From Oceanibaculum nanhaiense (GTDB lineage: Bacteria > Pseudomonadota > Alphaproteobacteria > Oceanibaculales > Oceanibaculaceae), in NCBI RefSeq assembly GCF_002148795.1, contig NZ_MPOB01000009.1:62001-126000 (forward strand): a DNA stretch of 64,000 bases. Direction: 5' to 3'. A program made the translations under genes and the position numbers. The notes beneath the pieces were generated by a model, which did no database searches, was not told the origin of the DNA, and saw nothing but the letters and a program-made list of their open reading frames with translations. Of the stretch, positions 55,517-64,000 are shown one piece after another; the stretch's first letter is position 1, and the number at the start of each line of letters is the position of its first letter.

Positions 55517-55629
55517 TTGATTTGGCGCGGAAGTAATGACAGTTTTTTGTCTGAGAAAGCGCCCGAAAGGGCCGGGACAAAAGAATTTGCGGATGCAGTA
55601 TTTTTCAAATGCCGAAAGGACAGCTCGGA

Positions 55630-56217
55630 ATGTCGGATAATCATAGCCATCGAGTGAGCAGTTTTATCCCACCCGTCTTCAGCCGGTTCGTCGGGGATGA
55701 AGATTTGAGCGCCGCCGGCGATCGTCCGTCGCCATGCTTTTATTCCCGGATCAGCGACGAGGATCTTTCCGCTGCCAGCGCGCCGCCGCCGTGCGGCGGC
55801 TTTCCCTGCCGGATCAGCGACGAGGACCTCTCCGCTGCCAGCGCGGCGCCAATGCCCTGCGCGTTCAGCCGTATCAGCGATGAGGACCTCTCCGCTGCCG
55901 GTAGCGCGGCACGACCGCCTGTTGGACCCTGCGTAACCTCCTGCTGGGTTGGCTCCGATGAAGACCTCTCCGCTGCCGGTAGCGCGGCACGGCCGCCTGT
56001 CGGACCCTGCGTAACCTCCTGCTGGGTTGGCTCCGATGAAGACCTCTCCGCTGCCGGTCTTTCCGCTGCCGGGACGGCCAAGTGCCGGCCATTGGGCTGC
56101 GTAATCGGCGACGAGGATATTTCTTCTGCCGGTATGGTTCGGCCGACGCCCAATTGCTCATGCTATGTGAGCGACGCCGATGAGGAATTGCTGGCTGATT
56201 CCGGTCAGTCGCATTAA
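55630..56217 (+). CDS. Putative multicore RiPP (TOMM) precursor protein
   Basis: A 195-residue protein with no known family. An N-terminal 21-residue segment is followed by seven copies of an eight-residue motif, (S/G)-DEDLSAA in six copies and GDEDISSA in the seventh, at residues 22, 42, 63, 83, 109, 135 and 160, plus a degenerate eighth at 181. All 12 cysteines (36, 55, 60, 77, 101, 105, 127, 131, 152, 157, 176, 178) lie in the 11- to 18-residue segments between copies, usually after Pro or Gly. Each segment ends in Ser/Cys-x-Ile/Val. The ATG at 55630 has AAAGGA upstream; one at 55609 has none. The motif resembles the D/E-rich end of Nif11-type leaders. Context (SagB, YcaO) suggests several cores with thiazole or thiazoline rings. 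Confidence 0.85.
   Translation: MSDNHSHRVSSFIPPVFSRFVGDEDLSAAGDRPSPCFYSRISDEDLSAASAPPPCGGFPCRISDEDLSAASAAPMPCAFSRISDEDLSAAGSAARPPVGPCVTSCWVGSDEDLSAAGSAARPPVGPCVTSCWVGSDEDLSAAGLSAAGTAKCRPLGCVIGDEDISSAGMVRPTPNCSCYVSDADEELLADSGQSH
55693..56193 (+). repeat. Array of eight DEDLSAA-type motifs in the precursor
   Basis: The 24-base coding units start at 55693, 55753, 55816, 55876, 55954, 56032, 56107 and a degenerate one at 56170. Spacings are 60, 63, 60, 78, 78, 75 and 63 bases. They are coding, not a CRISPR: the frame is kept and the units differ by synonymous changes (AGCGACGAG, AGCGATGAG, TCCGATGAA). Confidence 0.9.
55903..56058 (+). repeat. Near-identical 78-bp tandem duplication in the precursor
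   Basis: Bases 55903-55980 and 55981-56058 differ at only two positions (CGA/CGG and GTT/GTC), both synonymous. Each unit encodes one core segment (SAARPPVGPCVTSCWVG) plus the next DEDLSAAG motif, so the fourth and fifth cores are identical. This looks like a recent duplication, probably by unequal crossover. Confidence 0.95.
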
Positions 56218-56233
56218 TTCTGGCCTTCCAATG

Positions 56234-56273
56234 CGCGCCTGCCGGCTGCAAACCGGCGGGCGCGTCTTTGTTT
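56234..56273 (+). terminator. Intrinsic terminator between precursor and sagB-like gene
   Basis: A 12-bp stem (CGCGCCTGCCGG at 56234-56245 and CCGGCGGGCGCG at 56253-56264, one G-U wobble) with a 7-base loop is followed by TCTTTGTTT. It sits 16 bases after the precursor stop. Partial read-through would give much more precursor than enzyme mRNA. Confidence 0.82.
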
Positions 56274-56307
56274 CAGCTTTCCGGATCGCGGTAAAACGGG
56301 GCTCCTT

Positions 56308-57717
56308 GTGACGCATTTCCCCTGTGCCCCTTCCGAATCAATGTCGATTGTCGATGAATTCGGCTACCGGCTGCCGGTGTCGGTGGCATCCGCTACCGTC
56401 GATGCGGGTAATGGAAATCTGATCCTGTCGTTCCGTGACGGCACCGGGCTTTCTCTCGCCGGTCATGGCCGGCATGACGCGGAACTGCTGAACGCCCTGC
56501 TCGGGAATGGGGCAACGCACGCGCAACTCATGGCATTGGCCGGCGACGAGACCGACCAGTATGTCCCGGGATTTCTACGTTCCCTGGCCTTGCGGCAAGC
56601 GCTGGAATGGTTCTTCGGCCCGCCTGAGCAGCCGCTCTGCCACCTGCAAAGCTACAGCGGCACCTATTGCCCTATGCTGATAGCCCTGCCGGACGATGTG
56701 TTGCGCATGCCGCTTTCCCGCTTTGTCAGCCTGCGGCGGCATGGCGATGCCGCGATTCTCGATAATCCGGAAGTTCACGCGCGGCTGACCGTCGCACCGG
56801 CGGGCATAAAACTGCTGGATGGTTTGTTCGACCCCGTCGCCGGGCAGGAGACGAACAATCCGTTCCGTGGCTTTCTGGCCTGTGCCGGATTTCTTGAGTC
56901 GCCGCAGCCGGAACCGGCCGCGCGGGCGGCATGGGAATTTCACGATCTGCAGTTTCACGATGCGACTCGGCAGGCACTGGGGCTGAGACCCATTGCTAAG
57001 CACGACCGGTTGGCCGGGACTTACCCGAAGCCATCGCCGGAAAAGCCGGTGATGTCATCGAACCGTATCGTCCTGCCGGCACCAGCCGACCGGTCATCTC
57101 CGCCATTCGCGCATGTGCTGGCGGCGCGCCGCTCGATTCGCCGTCCGGCTTCCCAGCCCTTGCGGCTTGACGATCTCTCCACCCTGCTGTGGCAGTGCTT
57201 CCGCGCGGCAGATGTGCCGGGTCGTCCCGATGTCCGGCTCTGGCGCCCGGTCCCTGCGGGGGGCGCCATTCATGGGCTTGAGTATTATCTCGGTATCCGG
57301 CGCTGTGACGGGCTGGAAAGCGGGTTCTACCATTATCGGGAACAGGAGCATGCGCTGTATAGGCTGCCCTCGCGCCCGGTTCTTGAGGAGCGGTTATATC
57401 GCACGGCTGCGGGCGCCATGGGCGAAACCGGGACGCCGCCGGATTGCGTCGTCGTCATGGCCAGCCGTCACCCGCTGCTTGCCCGGGAGTATGAGGGCAT
57501 CGCCTATCGGCTGGCGCAGCTGCAGGCGGGGGCGGCGATGCAGACACTCTATCTTGTCGCGACTGCGCTCGGGCTGGCACCCTGCGCCAATGGTACCGGC
57601 GATTCGGCCTTGTTCGAGGCTCTGACCGGCCTGTCACCCTTCGAGGAAACCGCCATCGCCGAGTTTGCCCTGAGTGGCGGGCCGGAAGCGGATGAGGAAA
57701 ACAAGGAAAGCCGATGA
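56308..57717 (+). CDS. SagB-type peptide dehydrogenase
   Basis: A 469-residue protein. The N-terminal 230 residues are a SagB-family extension. The C-terminal 220 residues form a nitroreductase-like FMN domain (ARRSIRRPASQPLRLDDLSTLLWQC is described here by residues 271-296; then GFYHYREQEHALYRL and YEGIAYRLAQLQAGAAMQTL). Such enzymes oxidise thiazolines/oxazolines to azoles in TOMM peptides. Start: the GTG at 56308 has ACGGGG nearby; an ATG at 56341 has no Shine-Dalgarno. The stop overlaps the acetyltransferase start (ATGA). Confidence 0.88.
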   Translation: MTHFPCAPSESMSIVDEFGYRLPVSVASATVDAGNGNLILSFRDGTGLSLAGHGRHDAELLNALLGNGATHAQLMALAGDETDQYVPGFLRSLALRQALEWFFGPPEQPLCHLQSYSGTYCPMLIALPDDVLRMPLSRFVSLRRHGDAAILDNPEVHARLTVAPAGIKLLDGLFDPVAGQETNNPFRGFLACAGFLESPQPEPAARAAWEFHDLQFHDATRQALGLRPIAKHDRLAGTYPKPSPEKPVMSSNRIVLPAPADRSSPPFAHVLAARRSIRRPASQPLRLDDLSTLLWQCFRAADVPGRPDVRLWRPVPAGGAIHGLEYYLGIRRCDGLESGFYHYREQEHALYRLPSRPVLEERLYRTAAGAMGETGTPPDCVVVMASRHPLLAREYEGIAYRLAQLQAGAAMQTLYLVATALGLAPCANGTGDSALFEALTGLSPFEETAIAEFALSGGPEADEENKESR

Positions 57718-58637
57718 CGTCTATTGTCCTCGAACCCTATGGCAAGGATCACGAAGCCGGCCTGCGGCAGCAACTCGACGCGGCGGGTATCGTCAACCGG
57801 CAGGATGGCGTCGGCTATTTCTGGCGGCAGCTGATCGACGAGCCCTATCGCCGGAACAGCGCGGTGATTGTTGCCCGGCAAGGTGAGATGATCGTCGGCA
57901 TCGCTGTCGTGATGTGCCGGGCCTATGGCCGGCCGGAAGGGCGCTGTTCGATGATCATCGTCTTCGAAGATTGGCGCCGCCAGGGCATCGGCACCCGGTT
58001 GAAGGAAGCCGCGGACCGGCACATGGCCGAGGCCGGTATCCCGGCGCATTACGCCATGCTCTATGAAGGCCAGGAGGATGCCCTGCCCTTCCTGGAAGCC
58101 ACCGGCTTTCGCGAAGTGTGCAAGGATATCGTCATTGCCTGGAATGGTGGGGATTACAGCTACACCCCGGTCGAGGGCGTCCATTGCCGGGAATATCGCG
58201 GCGGTGATCCCGTGCTGAATGCCAAGATCGCCGAATTCCAGAACAAGGCCTTCGTGCGCGAGACCATGGTGCCGCACCTGACTGCCGACAGCATCGAAGG
58301 GATTCTGAGCGGCGACGGCCACTGGATGATGGTCGCTGTGGAAGTCGCAACGGATGAGGTGGTCGGTGTGACTGAATGCACGGACAACGCCCTGTTCCCC
58401 AGCATATCTGTGGCGCGGCGCTATTGGGCGAAGGGGCTGGCGGAATGGATCGGCGGCCTGTCGCTGGACCGCTATATAGCGGCGGGAATCGACAAACCCT
58501 GGACCATTGCCCGCCCGGAAAACCGCGCCTCGATCGCCTATCTGAAGCGCATGAACTGGCACCCGGTCAGCCACAGCACGACTTACGTATCTCCTACCGG
58601 CGCGCCTGTTCCCGAGGTGCTTACAGAAAGAAGTTGA
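57714..58637 (+). CDS. Tandem-domain GNAT acetyltransferase
   Basis: A 307-residue protein with two GNAT-like halves. The first (about residues 1-145) has the acetyl-CoA motif EDWRRQGIGTRLKEAADR. The second (about 150-307) has the degenerate RRYWAKGLAEWIGGLSLDRY and the end NRASIAYLKRMNWHPV. This two-domain layout resembles mycothiol synthase. Overlap with sagB suggests a role in peptide tailoring, for example N-acetylation as in goadsporin synthesis, but no function is shown. It overlaps the ycaO end by 17 bases, converging. Confidence 0.8.
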   Translation: MTSIVLEPYGKDHEAGLRQQLDAAGIVNRQDGVGYFWRQLIDEPYRRNSAVIVARQGEMIVGIAVVMCRAYGRPEGRCSMIIVFEDWRRQGIGTRLKEAADRHMAEAGIPAHYAMLYEGQEDALPFLEATGFREVCKDIVIAWNGGDYSYTPVEGVHCREYRGGDPVLNAKIAEFQNKAFVRETMVPHLTADSIEGILSGDGHWMMVAVEVATDEVVGVTECTDNALFPSISVARRYWAKGLAEWIGGLSLDRYIAAGIDKPWTIARPENRASIAYLKRMNWHPVSHSTTYVSPTGAPVPEVLTERS

Positions 58638-60923
58638 TCGGGTTGAGCGCGGTTTCCGCCAAGGGGGCGTCGAGAATGCCCTGGCGGACCGGTGCTTCGA
58701 ACAGCCTGTCGGCGCCGCGCCGGTTCCAGAAATGGCACAGGCCGGGAATTGCGACCTTCACGCAGGCCAGCGGTACGTCCCGGCGGTCATAATCCAGCAC
58801 CACAGTATCGTGCCCGGCGGCGGCCAGCCGTTCGACACAGAAACTGACCGCCTCGACAATCGAGACATCCTCCGGTCGCGGCAGGTCCCAGGAGCGGCCA
58901 GGCTGGCGCGTATCGGCCCGGAGATAGGGGTGCTGATCGATCACCGCCGTCTCGAACCAGTCCCGGGCATCGTCGAAGGAAGTCTTTTTCCCTCTGGCGT
59001 TGCCGTGTTCAGCGCATTGAAATAGATGCCCTGGTTCAATTCGGTAAGGGCTCGCGTCGCGGCAATGGCCGGATCGAGATGGGCACCGAATCCGATCGAG
59101 ATGCGGCTGCCATCCTGCGCCTGCGATGCGATCGCCGCCATCACCGGAATGCCGAGATCGGTGGTGAGGTCCAGCACCTCGACGCGCAGGCCGTCGCGGC
59201 GCGCGTAATCCTCCATTGCCTGCAGAAACGCCGAATCCACGCCCTCCAGCCGGGCGGCCGGACGATTATGCAGCCGGTTGTACCACCAGATGGCAATGGC
59301 ATCGCGTTCGATGACTTCCAGCAGGCCTTGCAGGATCGCCTCCTCGCGGGTGCCGCCGGACGCACAGCCATTGGAATCAGCGATGCAGAAAGCGTGATCC
59401 TCCGACACTTCCCGCGCGGCATAGTCGAAATAGCAGAACCGTGTCGGTAGCCAGCGCGGCGCATCCTGAGTCAGCGACCAGGCTGGCGACCATTCGATGG
59501 TGCTGCCCTCGTTGAACGGCTGTGGCACCTTGTGCATCGGCCCGGCCTGCTTGTTCAGGCTATCGCGGTTGGCATACTGGTGCGCACTGAAGCCGAGCAA
59601 TGCCTGCGGGTGGACAGCCTCCTCCCCCAGCGTGTCCAGGTGCGCGAGGCGGCGCGGCTCGCTGCCGGTCCAGCCGCAGGCATAGCGCTCCACCGCTTCG
59701 GCAAGACAGCTGATCCGGGCCTGCGTCGGGTTGATCCCCTTGCCGCCGGCCGAGCCGGGCTTGCCAAGCCCGCGATTCTGCCTTGGGTCGACCGATTCGC
59801 GGTTGGCCTGTGCCGCCACCGCAACATGAAGCCCCGGTGCAAGTTCGTGATCATCGATCCGGGCGACGATGCCGGTCAGCGGGCTGACGATAGGGTGCAG
59901 CTTTGCCAATGCTTCGGCGGGGGACAAGGCGCGCCAACCGCTTTCGCCTTTCCCGATGGCTTGTGCCGGGTTCAGCCTGATCGGCGGCGCTTCGGTAACA
60001 GCCGGCGATTCGCCGTCCCCGCAAACGGGGCAATCCTGGAAGTGCGGGGCAGCGTGCGAGCCGAGCGCCAGGCTGGCGCTGTCCAGCGTGACCAGATGCC
60101 CGGCAAGGCGGCTGGCATCCCCCATCGCGATATCGCCAATCTCGGTCGCGGCCAGGCCGAAGGCCAGCGACAGCGATCCCGGCGTCCAGCCCAGTGCCGG
60201 GCGCAACCCGCCGGGCAGGGCCGGAATCAGGGAATCGCCTGGCCGGTGCGCCATCAGCCGGCGGGCAAGGCAGAAATAGCAGGCTTGGGTGGAATCCGGC
60301 GCGGCTGGATTTTCGAAAATCGGGCCGATCCAGGCCTGCATCCCACCCGGCTTCAGCGGGATCCAGCGCCGTGCGCGGCCTTCCGTGCTGCCGGCGAAGC
60401 GGGCCAGACTTTCCTGGAGATAGTCATCGACCAGCACGAGCAACAGATCGGCGGCATCGGGCGCGGTTGTGGAAATGCCGCTGCCGGAAAGCATACCGGT
60501 CAGGCGTTCGGCTGCCGGCGTGCCGGCGCTTTCGCCGCTGCCCAGCGGCAAGACGCCGACCGACAGGCCTTGCAGGGTACGCATGGCGCTGTCCGGCGCC
60601 TGGCCCCGGGCGCTCCAATAGGCGTGCAACGGGCGCATTCCCATCAGATCGGACGGCGCTGGAACCGGCACGATATAGGATTTCGCCAGCATGTGTTTCA
60701 GGCAGTCCCGGACCGTATCGGCGTCCACGGATCGCGCGAGGGAGTCGACGATCTGCGCCGCCGTCAGCCGGCCGTCGAGAAGCGGCAGCAAGGCAATATA
60801 GAGCCCGCCGGTCAGCCGGTAGCTCTGGGTCTCCGACAGCAGCAGCAGGCGCTCCTCATCCTGGCGGTGGACGGCGAAATGCGGCGCGATGGCCAGATAG
60901 GCCTCTTCCGGCAGGACAGACAT
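58621..60923 (-). CDS. Fused YcaO cyclodehydratase, frame broken by a -1 shift
   Basis: TOMM cyclodehydratase (leader-binding/E1-like plus YcaO) that uses ATP to make azolines from Cys, Ser or Thr. The 646-residue zero-frame part runs from the ATG at 60923 (the N-terminal frame is open to a TTG at 61016) through RRE-like LSETQSYRLTGGLY, zinc cysteines CYFC and CPVC, and the YcaO core (EAVERYACGW, EVIERDAIAIWWYNR). It then stops at 58941 after 14 unrelated residues. The missing C-terminus lies in the -1 frame (58986-58621) as KTSFDDARDWFETAV and on to VPLACVKVAIPGLCHFWNRRG. Full length would be 767 residues. It ends NPINFFL, not the usual PxPxP. Confidence 0.85.
58986..58992 (-). other. G GGA AAA heptamer at the ycaO frame break
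   Basis: On the minus strand the zero-frame codons GGA AAA (58991-58986) are preceded by G, giving G GGA AAA. This is the X XXY YYZ form of a -1 ribosomal slippery site. After slippage the next codons are AAG ACT TCC, and the conserved YcaO frame opens. An assembly error in the run of five A residues or a true mutation is an alternative. Confidence 0.6.
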
Positions 60924-61022
60924 GACTCCCCGATATTCTCTAGCTATTCCATATGGATCGCGCGGCTGCGCCAACGGACGGTCCGGTGGACTATAACGCG
61001 TAGAGCGATGCGACAAAGGGGG

Positions 61023-62435
61023 TTATCTGGCGTCCCAGCCGCCGCCGAGGGCGGTAACCAGCTGAATCGACGCGATGAGCTGCTCCGCGCGGATTTCCAG
61101 TGCCGTGCGCCGGCTGGTGTAGGTCTGGTTCTGCGCCACCGAGACTTCCAGGAAAGTCACCAGACCGGCGCGGTAGCGGTTGGTCACGACGCGTTCATTC
61201 TCCTCCGCCAGCTCGACCAGCCTTTGTTGCTGCACGGCCTTCTCGGAGAGGGTCTGAAGCGTGGCCAGCGCATCCTCCACCTCCTGCATGCCGGTGAGGA
61301 AAGTCTGGCGGTAGGCAGCCACCCGCTCGTCATATTGCGCGCGGCTTTGCTCGACCAGTGCGCTGCGCCGTCCGCTGTCGAACAGGGTCGCCGCCAGCGA
61401 CGGACCGACCGACCAGATGAATTGCGGTGCGCTGAGCAGGTCGATGAAGCGCCCCTCCTGCAGGACGCCCTGCGCGCTCAGGGTCAGGTCGGGGAACCAG
61501 GCGCCCTCGGCGACGCCGATATTGGCATTGGCCGCGGCGACCAGCCGCTCGGCGGCGGTGATGTCGGGGCGCCGGGCCAGCAGCGCTGCGGGCATCTGGG
61601 CTGGAATCGCGGGCGGCGGCGGCAGTGCATCGGTGCGCGCCACGGCGAAACCGGCGGGCGGGCGGCCCAGCAGAACGGCAATCGCGTTCTCATTCAGCAG
61701 GCGCTGCTGGAGAAGATCGGATTCCTGGGTCAGCAGCGATTGCAGCTGGACTTCCGACTGGATGACATCGGCCCGCGCGGCAAGGCCGGCACTGTACTGG
61801 TTGCGGGTCAGTTCCAGCGAGCGCGCATAGGCCTCACGGGTCAGTTCCAGCAGACCGAGATAGAGGTCGGTGGCGCGGATACGCAAGTAAGCCTGGGCCA
61901 CGGTCGATTGCATGCTGAGCCGCATCGCTTCCAGATCGGCGGCACTGCTGGCAATGCTGGCGCGGTCGGCTTCCATCTGCCGGCGCAGCTTGCCCCATAG
62001 ATCCGGCACCCAGCTGGCGGTCGCGCCGACCTGATAGGCGGTGCCGTCGCTGCTGCTGGAAAGGCTCGAACCGCCGCCATTATTCTCCCGCCCGCTGCGT
62101 TGTGCGCTGGCATTGCCCTGAACCTGCGGCAACGCACCGGCGCGGGAAACCCGCAACTGCGCCAGCGCCTGGCGGTAGCGGGCCTCGGCCTGTGCCACGG
62201 ACAGGTTCGATCCGGCTGTCGTGCGCATAAGACGGTCGAGTTCCGGGTCGCCATAGATCGCCCACCAGTCGCCCGATGGCGGCGCCTCCACGCTCGACAG
62301 GCTGCGCCAGCCCGCCTCATGCTTGTAGGCTGCCGAAATCGGTACTTCCGGCCGGCTGTAATCCGGTCCGACCGTACAGCCCGCCAGCACGGCCGAGGTC
62401 AGAAGGATCACCGGGAAAAAACCGTGGTGTTTCAT
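61023..62435 (-). CDS. TolC-family outer membrane efflux lipoprotein (NodT type)
   Basis: A 470-residue lipoprotein (lipobox VLAGC) with duplicated outer-membrane efflux (OEP) domains, beginning CTVGPDYSRPEVP and ending in the C-terminal helical repeat. It is the outer-membrane channel for the RND pump encoded just upstream (4-base overlap). The ATG at 62435 is preferred; an upstream frame adds 13 residues without a signal. The ycaO start follows about 100 bases downstream, or 7 bases from the alternative TTG, so the pump and cyclodehydratase may share a transcript. Confidence 0.92.
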   Translation of the reverse strand: MKHHGFFPVILLTSAVLAGCTVGPDYSRPEVPISAAYKHEAGWRSLSSVEAPPSGDWWAIYGDPELDRLMRTTAGSNLSVAQAEARYRQALAQLRVSRAGALPQVQGNASAQRSGRENNGGGSSLSSSSDGTAYQVGATASWVPDLWGKLRRQMEADRASIASSAADLEAMRLSMQSTVAQAYLRIRATDLYLGLLELTREAYARSLELTRNQYSAGLAARADVIQSEVQLQSLLTQESDLLQQRLLNENAIAVLLGRPPAGFAVARTDALPPPPAIPAQMPAALLARRPDITAAERLVAAANANIGVAEGAWFPDLTLSAQGVLQEGRFIDLLSAPQFIWSVGPSLAATLFDSGRRSALVEQSRAQYDERVAAYRQTFLTGMQEVEDALATLQTLSEKAVQQQRLVELAEENERVVTNRYRAGLVTFLEVSVAQNQTYTSRRTALEIRAEQLIASIQLVTALGGGWDAR

Positions 62436-64000
62436 GATGCAAATCCGGTGCGGGCGAAGCGGCGTAGGCTCCATTGCCGCAGGCGTTCGAAGTAGAGATA
62501 GACCACCGGGGTCGTGTACAGGGTCAGTATCTGGCTGACCGCCAGCCCGCCGATGATGGCGATGCCCAGCGGCTGGCGCATCTCTGCCCCCTCCCCCAGC
62601 CCGATGGCAAGCGGCACCGCGCCTAGCAGGCCGGCGAGGTTGGTCATCAGGATCGGGCGCAGTCGCAGCAAGGCGGCATGGTGGATGGCCTCTACCGGGC
62701 TGGCGCCGTCGCGGCGCTGCCGCTCCAGCGCGAAATCGACCATCAGGATGGCATTCTTCATCACGATACCAATCAGCAGGAACAGCCCCAGCAGAGCGAT
62801 CAGCGTGAATTCCGTATTGCTTGCGCGCAGCGCCAGCAGTGCCCCGATACCGGCCGATGGCAGCGTGGACAGGATGGTCAGCGGATGCAGCGTGCTTTCA
62901 TACAGCACGCCGAGCAGCAGATAGACCGCCAGCAACACGCCCGCGATAAGCAGCGGCTGGGCCTGTACGCTTTCCTGAAAGCCGCGTGACCGTCCGCCGG
63001 TGCGGGCCTGAACTTCGGTCGGCAGCAGGATGTCCGCCAGCATCCGGTCGATGGCTTCCTGCGCTTGCTGCGTGGTGACGCCGGGTGCCAGCGAATAGCC
63101 GATGCTGGCCGCCGCGAACTGCGAATCATGATAGATGCGGTCATCCGCCAGCCCGTAGCTGTAGCTGGTGAAGGCGGCCAGCGGCACGCGGTTGCCGTCA
63201 GCGGTGATCGCCTGCAACTGGTCCAGCACCGCCGGCTGCGCGGTATAGCCGGGCATCAGCTCCATCACCACGCGGTACTGGTTCTGATCGTCATAGAGTG
63301 TGGCGACCTGGCGCTGTGAGAAGGAATTGCTGAGGATGGCCGAAATCGCCTGGGTATCGACGTTGAGACGCCGCGCGGCCTCCCGGTCGATATCGAGGAT
63401 GACCTGCTGCGTGCCCTTGTCGCCTTCGGCCGAGACATCGACCAGCTCCGGCATCGCCTGCATCGCCTCCGAGGCCCGCCGCGCCCAGCGTTGCAGCAGC
63501 GCGATATCGTCGGCCATCAGCACCAGTTCGGAATCGCTCTGGTTGAAGGAAAAGCCAAGCCTGATGTCCTGATCGGCGAACAGGATCAGAATGCCGCCCG
63601 GGACCGGCGGCACCTTCCGGCGGATGCGGTCGATCACCTGCTGGGCGCTGAGGCCGTCGCGTTCGGCCAGGGGCTTCAGCTGCACGGTCAGGAAGGCATT
63701 GCTGACGCCGCCATTGTCGCCGCTGGTGCCGGCGACATCGCTGACCGCCGGATCGGCCAGCAGCAGGCGCCGGTACGCCTCGATCTTCGGCTGCATGACC
63801 TGAAAGGAAAAACCGTCATCGCCGCGCACGAATCCGCGTATCTGCGAGGTGCTCTGCTGCGGCAGCAGCCCTTTCGGTATGCTGATGTAGAGATAGACAT
63901 TCAGGCCGATCACCGCGCCCAGCATCAGCAGCACGACGACCCCATGCCGCAGCGTCCAGGCCAGGCTGTCGGCATAGAGCGAGCGCACATCGGCGAACAG
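62432..64000 (-). CDS. RND efflux transporter (MdtC-like), C-terminal part (runs off right edge)
   Basis: The visible 522 residues are the C-terminal half of an HAE1/MdtB-MdtC-type inner-membrane pump. They include a transmembrane helix near WTLRHGVVVLLMLGAVIGL, a periplasmic porter domain and the last transmembrane bundle, with GVLYESTLHPLTILSTLPSAG typical of MdtC. The frame is open to base 64000, so the start lies outside. It overlaps tolC by 4 bases. No membrane-fusion protein is visible here; it would be expected upstream. Possible role in export of the cluster product. Confidence 0.92.
   Translation of the reverse strand: MFADVRSLYADSLAWTLRHGVVVLLMLGAVIGLNVYLYISIPKGLLPQQSTSQIRGFVRGDDGFSFQVMQPKIEAYRRLLLADPAVSDVAGTSGDNGGVSNAFLTVQLKPLAERDGLSAQQVIDRIRRKVPPVPGGILILFADQDIRLGFSFNQSDSELVLMADDIALLQRWARRASEAMQAMPELVDVSAEGDKGTQQVILDIDREAARRLNVDTQAISAILSNSFSQRQVATLYDDQNQYRVVMELMPGYTAQPAVLDQLQAITADGNRVPLAAFTSYSYGLADDRIYHDSQFAAASIGYSLAPGVTTQQAQEAIDRMLADILLPTEVQARTGGRSRGFQESVQAQPLLIAGVLLAVYLLLGVLYESTLHPLTILSTLPSAGIGALLALRASNTEFTLIALLGLFLLIGIVMKNAILMVDFALERQRRDGASPVEAIHHAALLRLRPILMTNLAGLLGAVPLAIGLGEGAEMRQPLGIAIIGGLAVSQILTLYTTPVVYLYFERLRQWSLRRFARTGFAS

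What the first reader, a model, noticed from the sequence alone, without database searches (positions are those of the whole stretch)
55630..61016. Candidate new TOMM-class RiPP system with a multicore, repeat-built precursor
A YcaO cyclodehydratase, a SagB-type dehydrogenase and a GNAT acetyltransferase lie within 5.4 kb of a 195-residue protein built of DEDLSAA-type motifs alternating with short Cys-containing segments. All 12 cysteines are in the segments and none in the motifs or the first 21 residues. Known TOMM precursors usually have one leader and one core; multicore layouts with repeated recognition motifs are best known from cyanobactins. Here a mini-leader may precede every core. 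I cannot exclude that the family is already described.
Basis: partly seen in the sequence, partly recalled or inferred. Interest (0 to 1): 0.95.

Follow-up and report, generated by a model that had tools for sequence, protein, structure and literature searches.

The report
Beads-on-a-string precursor for ring-modified peptides
A bacterial gene encodes seven cysteine-bearing peptide segments in one chain, each preceded by a near copy of one short acidic tag; the tag likely docks the predicted ring-forming enzymes encoded next door, so one gene would yield several different modified peptides.

Summary
Window 55630-56217 encodes 195 residues with seven DEDLSAA-type motifs, and all 12 cysteines lie in the segments after them. 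Beside it are a SagB/ThcOx-type dehydrogenase, a GNAT protein and a fused wHTH/E1-like/YcaO cyclodehydratase whose nearest solved relatives are LynD and TruD of cyanobactin synthesis. In 5 of 7 units the repeat fits the L(X)4L leader motif that LynD-type enzymes bind, and it resembles 'motif 2' of NHLP/Nif11 leaders. Similar motif-plus-Cys modules occur as about 20 single-core stretches in one alphaproteobacterium with a related YcaO, as multicore genes in another (K_MB42), as 26 units in a same-genus protein, and as 7, 5 and 4 units in near-identical proteins. Five of nine more distant YcaO loci carry an NHLP leader with one core. Best reading: a LAP/TOMM-class polyprotein with one mini-leader per core. 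Modification, cleavage and product are untested. Caveats: the window's YcaO is split by a frameshift; in the same-genus genome the YcaO is unlinked and 25 of 26 units have (X)5; one genome has the module without YcaO. I found no description among the open-licence papers listed. New variant of a known kind.

The parts
55615..55620 (+). Shine-Dalgarno-like AAAGGA, 9 bases before ATG 55630
   Evidence: sequence
55630..56217 (+). repeat-built precursor, 195 aa, 7 units, 12 Cys
   Evidence: homologues P0002-P0005
55630..55695 (+). N-terminal 22 residues, no Cys
55696..55755 (+). unit 1: DEDLSAAG + segment DRPSPCFYSR (V(X)4L)
55756..55818 (+). unit 2: DEDLSAAS + segment with PPPC...PC (I(X)4L)
55819..55878 (+). 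unit 3: DEDLSAAS + segment with APMPC (I(X)4L)
55879..55956 (+). unit 4: DEDLSAAG + segment PPVGPCVTSCW (I(X)4L)
55957..56034 (+). unit 5: same 26 residues as unit 4; 3 nucleotide differences in 78, none changing the protein; V(X)5L spacing
   Evidence: tandem repeat of period 78 at 55878-56058, 97% matches
56035..56109 (+). unit 6: DEDLSAAGLSAAG + segment TAKCRPLGC; V(X)5L spacing
56110..56217 (+). unit 7: DEDISSAG + segment RPTPNCSC and C-terminal tail (V(X)4I)
56308..57717 (+). SagB-type dehydrogenase with ThcOx N-terminal domain
   Evidence: TIGR03605 E 7e-33, PF22767 E 4e-8; nearest solved CyaGox/ThcOx E 1e-33
57714..58637 (+). GNAT protein overlapping the SagB stop; role unknown
   Evidence: PF00583 E 3e-11; 59% identical to the GNAT beside the G003 precursor
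58941..60923 (-). LynD/TruD-like cyclodehydratase, main frame (listed from TTG 61016; ATG 60923 is the likely start, inferred from a GGGGAG before it and the alignment)
60672..60890 (-). N-terminal winged-helix (RRE-like) domain of the cyclodehydratase
   Evidence: PF21084 E 5e-9, residues 43-115; aligned with the LynD N-terminus
58624..58989 (-). C-terminal part of the YcaO protein in a second frame
58985..58992 (-). site of the frameshift that splits YcaO (G3A5 run on the minus strand)
   Evidence: downstream fold no better than shuffles (z +1.29)
61023..62474 (-). NodT-type outer-membrane efflux protein, about 100 bp upstream of YcaO on the same strand; possible export partner
   Evidence: TIGR01845 E 1e-114
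62432..64000 (-). RND pump, continuing beyond the window with a second pump and a membrane-fusion protein

Best explanation
The 195-residue protein is likely a RiPP polyprotein of the azole-forming (LAP/TOMM) class, in which each of seven units would pair its own enzyme-docking mini-leader, built around D-E-D-L-S-A-A, with a short Cys-containing core. Inferred steps: the N-terminal RRE-like domain of the LynD-like cyclodehydratase binds the motif of any unit; the YcaO domain turns that unit's Cys into thiazolines; the SagB/ThcOx-type enzyme oxidises them to thiazoles; the enzyme lets go and re-binds at another unit; a protease not found here cuts near the motif's AA(G/S) end, which resembles the end of NHLP/Nif11 leaders; the GNAT may acetylate freed peptides or protect the producer; export may use the adjacent RND system. 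Shown here: the anatomy, the enzymes' kinship, the recurrence of similar modules, and unit gain or loss between near-identical proteins. Not shown: binding, ring formation, cleavage, export, activity.
For: 1) Enzymes: fused wHTH + TIGR03882 + YcaO; nearest solved LynD/TruD/MusD; dehydrogenase nearest ThcOx. 2) Motif: phi(X)4[LIM] with two or more acidic residues occurs 154 times in 41 precursors against 16.1 in shuffles; (X)3 3 vs 9.1; (X)5 47 vs 24.5, 25 of them in G003. Window alone: 5, reached by 1 of 20000 shuffles. LynD and NHLP-YcaO use of L(X)4L: PMC12455567 passages. NHLP motif 2 ELSDEQLDAVAGG: PMC2887384 passages. 3) Module alone: 20 distinct '..DELxDEALD|core' stretches in the G383 loci fetched, 19 with a Cys after the motif, in a genome with a related YcaO. 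4) Module multiplied: K_MB42 multicore genes, one near its YcaO; 32 database relatives, each with at least two motifs; G003, 26 units and 58 Cys, beside SagB and GNAT. 5) Cross-detection: a profile of 17 K_MB42-type proteins finds the window (E 9e-4) and G003 (E 1e-5) proteins, weakly. 6) Tree: window, G003, Tistlia, L016 and K_MB42 YcaOs group (100/100), G383 next to them on a long branch; the nine others group apart (midpoint root). 7) P0002 and P0003 are 99% identical to the window protein where aligned, with units missing in frame.
Against: No chemistry was tested. The window's YcaO is frame-split. In G003 the YcaO lies on another contig (C2) than the precursor (C12), and 25 of 26 of its units have five residues between the hydrophobic residue and Leu, as have 2 of 7 window units. 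A second profile (A3, short and K_MB42-type proteins) did not find the window or G003 proteins at E<=0.05, so their kinship with that type rests on weak scores. G062 has motif-plus-Cys genes but no YcaO. Tistlia and L016 have the YcaO but no precursor was found. No protease family among the 15 proteins scanned around the locus. In pooled units a Cys often stands 4-5 residues before the motif anchor (31 Cys in the 12-residue motif windows, 58 in the rest), so the core/motif border is unsure. PMC12455567 reports that the NHLP enzyme also needs more than L(X)4L. Units of one protein, and proteins fetched by similarity, are not independent.
Confidence: 0.65

Rival explanations
1. Multicore TOMM with one working leader: only the N-terminal region and first motif recruit the cyclodehydratase, which then works along the chain, while the later DEDLSAA copies are protease or spacer signals, like RSII/RSIII around cyanobactin cores.
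For: In cyanobactins RSI directs heterocyclisation and each core is flanked by RSII and RSIII (PMC4663559 passages; that RSI is single is recalled). The motif end AA(G/S) sits where NHLP leaders are cut. Two of 7 window units and 25 of 26 G003 units depart from (X)4 spacing.
Against: In G383 and G062 a similar motif is the sole leader-like element before a single core, so it is probably more than a cut site; G062 has no YcaO, so this argument rests on G383.
Confidence: 0.22
2. The system is real elsewhere but decaying in this strain: the YcaO is a pseudogene, so the precursor is made but not modified here.
For: YcaO is split at a homopolymer run; L019, L016 and L017 orthologues are full-length; no fold signal for programmed frameshifting (z +1.29).
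Against: A draft-assembly indel would look the same (the K_MB42 YcaO is also in two frames); precursor, SagB and GNAT are open frames and near-identical relatives of the precursor exist.
Confidence: 0.15
3. The repeat protein is a Cys-rich metal-binding or structural protein that happens to lie beside the enzymes.
For: PxPCGxC segments in G003 could be metal ligands; in G003 the YcaO is unlinked.
Against: SagB and GNAT stay beside it in both species (51% and 59% identity); neither YcaO nor precursor was found in the other two genomes of the genus; a K_MB42 relative lies near YcaO; no Pfam or NCBIfam family over its cut-off matches.
Confidence: 0.06

Closest known systems
Cyanobactins (PatE/TruE-type precursors with LynD/TruD)
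   Same: Fused leader-binding YcaO enzyme, ThcOx-type oxidase, several cores per precursor, L(X)4L recognition
   Different: Passages describe 1-4 cores, RSI directing heterocyclisation and RSII/RSIII around each core (a single RSI is recalled); here an RSI-like motif precedes each of 7 (or 26) cores, and no PatA/PatG-like protease was found among the 15 proteins scanned
NHLP/Nif11 TOMM precursors (TIGR03793, TIGR03798)
   Same: Motif 2 ELSDEQLDAVAGG-like end before a variable core; related YcaO group in which 5 of 9 loci have NHLP leaders, four ending EEQLEAISAG-LCCCW and one EEQLEAVAAG-RCCC
   Different: No nitrile-hydratase-like leader recognised in the window protein (no NCBIfam match at E<=1); only the short motif is present, repeated
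Thiovarsolin VarA
   Same: YcaO system with a repeated precursor, from non-repeating to five repeats across relatives (PMC6511847 passages)
   Different: Thioamidation with TfuA; repeats are described as of the core, behind a predicted leader
Microviridin AMdnA (three cores)
   Same: One precursor with several cores, worked on distributively (PMC5934393 passages)
   Different: ATP-grasp chemistry; one conserved leader motif

Membership tests
TOMM / linear azol(in)e-containing peptide (LAP) | E1-like leader-binding protein plus YcaO cyclodehydratase | tested here: met
   TIGR03882 E 3e-23, PF02624 E 5e-75; gene split by a frameshift in this assembly
TOMM / linear azol(in)e-containing peptide (LAP) | precursor with heterocyclisable (Cys/Ser/Thr) core near the enzymes | tested here: met
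   12 Cys, all in segments after motifs
TOMM / linear azol(in)e-containing peptide (LAP) | azoline/azole in the product | not testable with these tools
   needs mass spectrometry
Cyanobactin | PatA/PatG-type proteases in the cluster | tested here: not met
   none among the 15 proteins scanned around the precursor; rest of the genome not tested
Cyanobactin | one RSI serving all cores (feature recalled) | tested here: not met
   seven RSI-like motifs
Cyanobactin | N-to-C macrocycle | not testable with these tools
   product unknown
NHLP precursor (TIGR03793) | nitrile-hydratase-like leader matching the model | tested here: not met
   no NCBIfam match at E<=1
NHLP precursor (TIGR03793) | L(X)4L / motif 2 before the core | tested here: met
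   5 of 7 window units phi(X)4[LI]; 2 of 7 (X)5
Thiovarsolin-type thioamidated RiPP | TfuA protein beside YcaO | tested here: not met
   none among the 15 proteins scanned with Pfam

The most novel reading that the evidence does not exclude
A 'mini-leader per core' RiPP architecture: an NHLP-like leader was whittled down to its L(X)4L docking motif, and the motif-plus-core module then multiplied, as dispersed single-core genes in some alphaproteobacteria and as fused polyproteins of up to 26 units in others, so that one cyclodehydratase docks independently at every bead and core repertoires change by in-frame gain and loss of units.
Probability: 0.48. Interest if true: 0.85.

Novelty: new variant of a known kind. 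Interest (0 to 1): 0.72.

Why it matters
RiPP enzymes normally read one leader for one or a few cores. If each core carries its own docking motif, modification no longer depends on distance from one leader, and one gene can encode dozens of peptides that evolve by unit exchange. It would give a natural test of distributive versus processive YcaO action, a ready scaffold for designed peptide arrays, and a route from globular NHLP leaders to minimal ones.

Tried and rejected
The G070 match (L012) to the precursor looks antisense to metabolic genes (named by eye) and was dropped as chance. A search with the 633-residue G003 protein found nothing at E<=0.01. Plasmid records held no relative of two repeat proteins; of 20 plasmid records with a YcaO relative the 15 shown were 29-36% identical. 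SPFH near YcaO in four loci is not specific, since 4 of 4 genomes of the genus have a homologue. Programmed -1 frameshifting in YcaO: the run looks slippery, but the downstream fold is no better than shuffles and three orthologues are full-length, so not favoured. AlphaFold2 of the YcaO with four rows gave pLDDT 41.5 and was not used. The phylum sample of 398 genomes hit only G000. The RND genes of the window and of L016/L036 look like different families (bit scores), so the shared neighbourhood may be chance. Precursor-type labels on the YcaO tree are not significant by the tool's own shuffles (163 of 200 as low). The Fisher value 0.008 uses only the 9 of 15 rows with a known precursor type, pools single-core with repeat types and leaves 6 rows out. 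Fisher for profile hit against YcaO is 1.2e-4, or 0.0026 without G376; it includes the window genome itself. Position entropies were made on anchors picked by the motif pattern (in three of the four proteins one anchor is a C-terminal DEEL that I do not count as a unit), so they are no test of conservation.
Full report
OBSERVATION. The precursor is 195 aa from ATG 55630. It has seven motifs (DEDLSAA six times, DEDISSA once), and its 12 Cys lie in the segments that follow them (number from residue 2). Units 4 and 5 are identical in 26 residues and differ at 3 of 78 bases.

ENZYMES. The YcaO protein has an N-terminal winged-helix domain (PF21084), a TIGR03882 leader-binding domain and a YcaO domain. 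Its nearest solved relatives are LynD (E 9e-104), TruD and MusD. The dehydrogenase is nearest CyaGox/ThcOx (E 1e-33). The GNAT has no solved relative at E<=0.01. The YcaO frame is broken at 58985-58992, while the L019, L016 and L017 orthologues are full-length. An RND system (outer-membrane protein, two pumps, fusion protein) lies upstream on the YcaO strand.

RELATIVES OF THE REPEAT PROTEIN. A protein search scored 7993 candidates and found four relatives. P0002 and P0003 are 99% identical where aligned but have 5 and 4 units; P0004 and P0005 are 79% and 76% identical and have 7 each, not counting a C-terminal DEEL. Of the four genomes of the genus held, G000 and G003 have the precursor and the same two have the YcaO. 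G003's protein has 633 aa, 26 motifs and 58 Cys, beside SagB and GNAT, but its YcaO is on another contig. In a sample of 385 genomes of the class no other genome had a credible match to the window protein (one match dropped).

RELATIVES OF THE YCAO. A scan of species genomes gave 4 loci: L015, a 99% copy that ends inside the gene; L016; L017, Tistlia consotensis; L018, uncultured alphaproteobacterium K_MB42. A profile of four YcaOs found 13 of 385 alphaproteobacterial genomes at E<=1e-80, G000 and G003 among them. Near K_MB42's YcaO is a multicore gene with an [LV]-x-D-E-A-L motif before each Cys segment. Searching with it gave 32 proteins, each with at least two such motifs and with Cys segments; one is named as from Acidiferrobacteraceae. 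Their gene neighbourhoods could not be seen. A profile of 17 proteins of this type, without window or G003 sequences, hit 4 of 385 genomes: G000 (E 9e-4), G003 (E 1e-5), K_MB42 (9 places on three contigs, two of them in one frame-broken gene) and G062. A phylum sample of 398 genomes gave only G000. A second profile (A3, 12 rows) did not find G000 or G003 at E<=0.05. G062 has tandem single-unit genes and no YcaO.

THE MODULE ALONE. G383, whose YcaO is next to the window's group in the tree though on a long branch, has 20 distinct stretches of the form ..DELxDEALD followed by a short core in the loci fetched, 19 with a Cys after the motif. Three of the 20 rows touch masked bases, one of them in its core. 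Here the motif is the only leader-like element before a single core. That each stretch is an expressed gene is not shown.

THE MOTIF. Passages of PMC12455567 state that the LynD RRE binds the PatE leader over an L(X)4L motif, that the Leu pair is shared with NHLP leaders and needed for modification there, that for short precursors the motif suffices, and that the NHLP enzyme MprC also needs a leader helix. Passages of PMC2887384 give motif 2 of NHLP as ELSDEQLDAVAGG. Counting phi(X)n[LIM] with two or more acidic residues in 41 precursors: n=4 154 against 16.1 in shuffles; n=3 3 against 9.1; n=5 47 against 24.5, of which 25 in G003. The units of one protein are not independent, and 32 of the 41 were fetched by similarity to one of them. 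Spacing by unit: window 5 of 7 (X)4 and 2 of 7 (X)5; G003 1 of 26 (X)4 and 25 of 26 (X)5. So G003 departs from the rule that the window mostly keeps; whether its enzyme differs in step is not known. In pooled units a Cys often stands just before the motif, so the border of core and motif is not settled.

PHYLOGENY. In a tree of 15 YcaOs (midpoint root), window, G003, Tistlia, L016 and K_MB42 group (100/100), G383 joins them (100/100), and nine other loci form the rest. Five of those nine carry an NHLP leader with a CCC-type core (TIGR03793 E 9e-20 for the one tested); no repeat or short precursor was seen there by the scan. For 6 of 15 no precursor was seen. The tree tool's shuffles do not make the labels significant.

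READING. The simplest account is that a leader end plus core became the unit of duplication. Each unit would dock the cyclodehydratase by itself. The alternative, one working leader and the rest as cut sites, is not excluded.

LITERATURE. Ten searches of the open-licence library showed no paper on this family among the rows listed; several lists were cut (for example 20 of 163 papers, 12 of 212,930), so this is no proof of absence, and subscription papers were not searched. Passages seen: cyanobactins with 1-4 cores, RSI for heterocyclisation, RSII/RSIII around cores, and a legend saying that multiple copies of core and recognition sequences may exist (PMC4663559); several cores in microviridin (PMC5934393); [quoted passage not shown] repeats in thiovarsolins (PMC6511847); a core finder for repeated leader-follower patterns in cyanobactins and plants (PMC10349150).

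Noticed in passing
window 58985-58992 (minus strand): YcaO frame broken at a G3A5 run that looks like a slippery heptamer; no downstream structure beyond shuffles.
   Followed up: partly
L019:5525-7639: DUF692/MNIO-like, DUF2063-like and DoxX-like genes in a row about 1.3 kb from the G003 YcaO (named by eye from the translations), resembling a bufferin-type cluster.
   Followed up: no
L064:8613-10796 and L065:9170-9986: Eleven short open frames in three groups in YcaO-less genome G062, each with an ELSDEALDR-like motif and a Cys core; modifying enzyme unknown.
   Followed up: partly
L037:10965-12404, L044:7211-8599: Open frames of 463-480 aa beside NHLP-type YcaO genes begin with a weak NHLP leader domain (TIGR03793 below cut-off) joined to an unidentified part.
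   Followed up: partly
L036/L018 (G376): K_MB42 has repeat-precursor matches at 9 places on three contigs but one YcaO locus, reminiscent of one-enzyme-many-precursor systems.
   Followed up: partly
L015: A contig filed under a 'Clostridia' MAG carries, in its second part (from about 5.2 kb, by eye), the window's RND-OMF-YcaO stretch, 99% identical in YcaO: it looks chimaeric.
   Followed up: no
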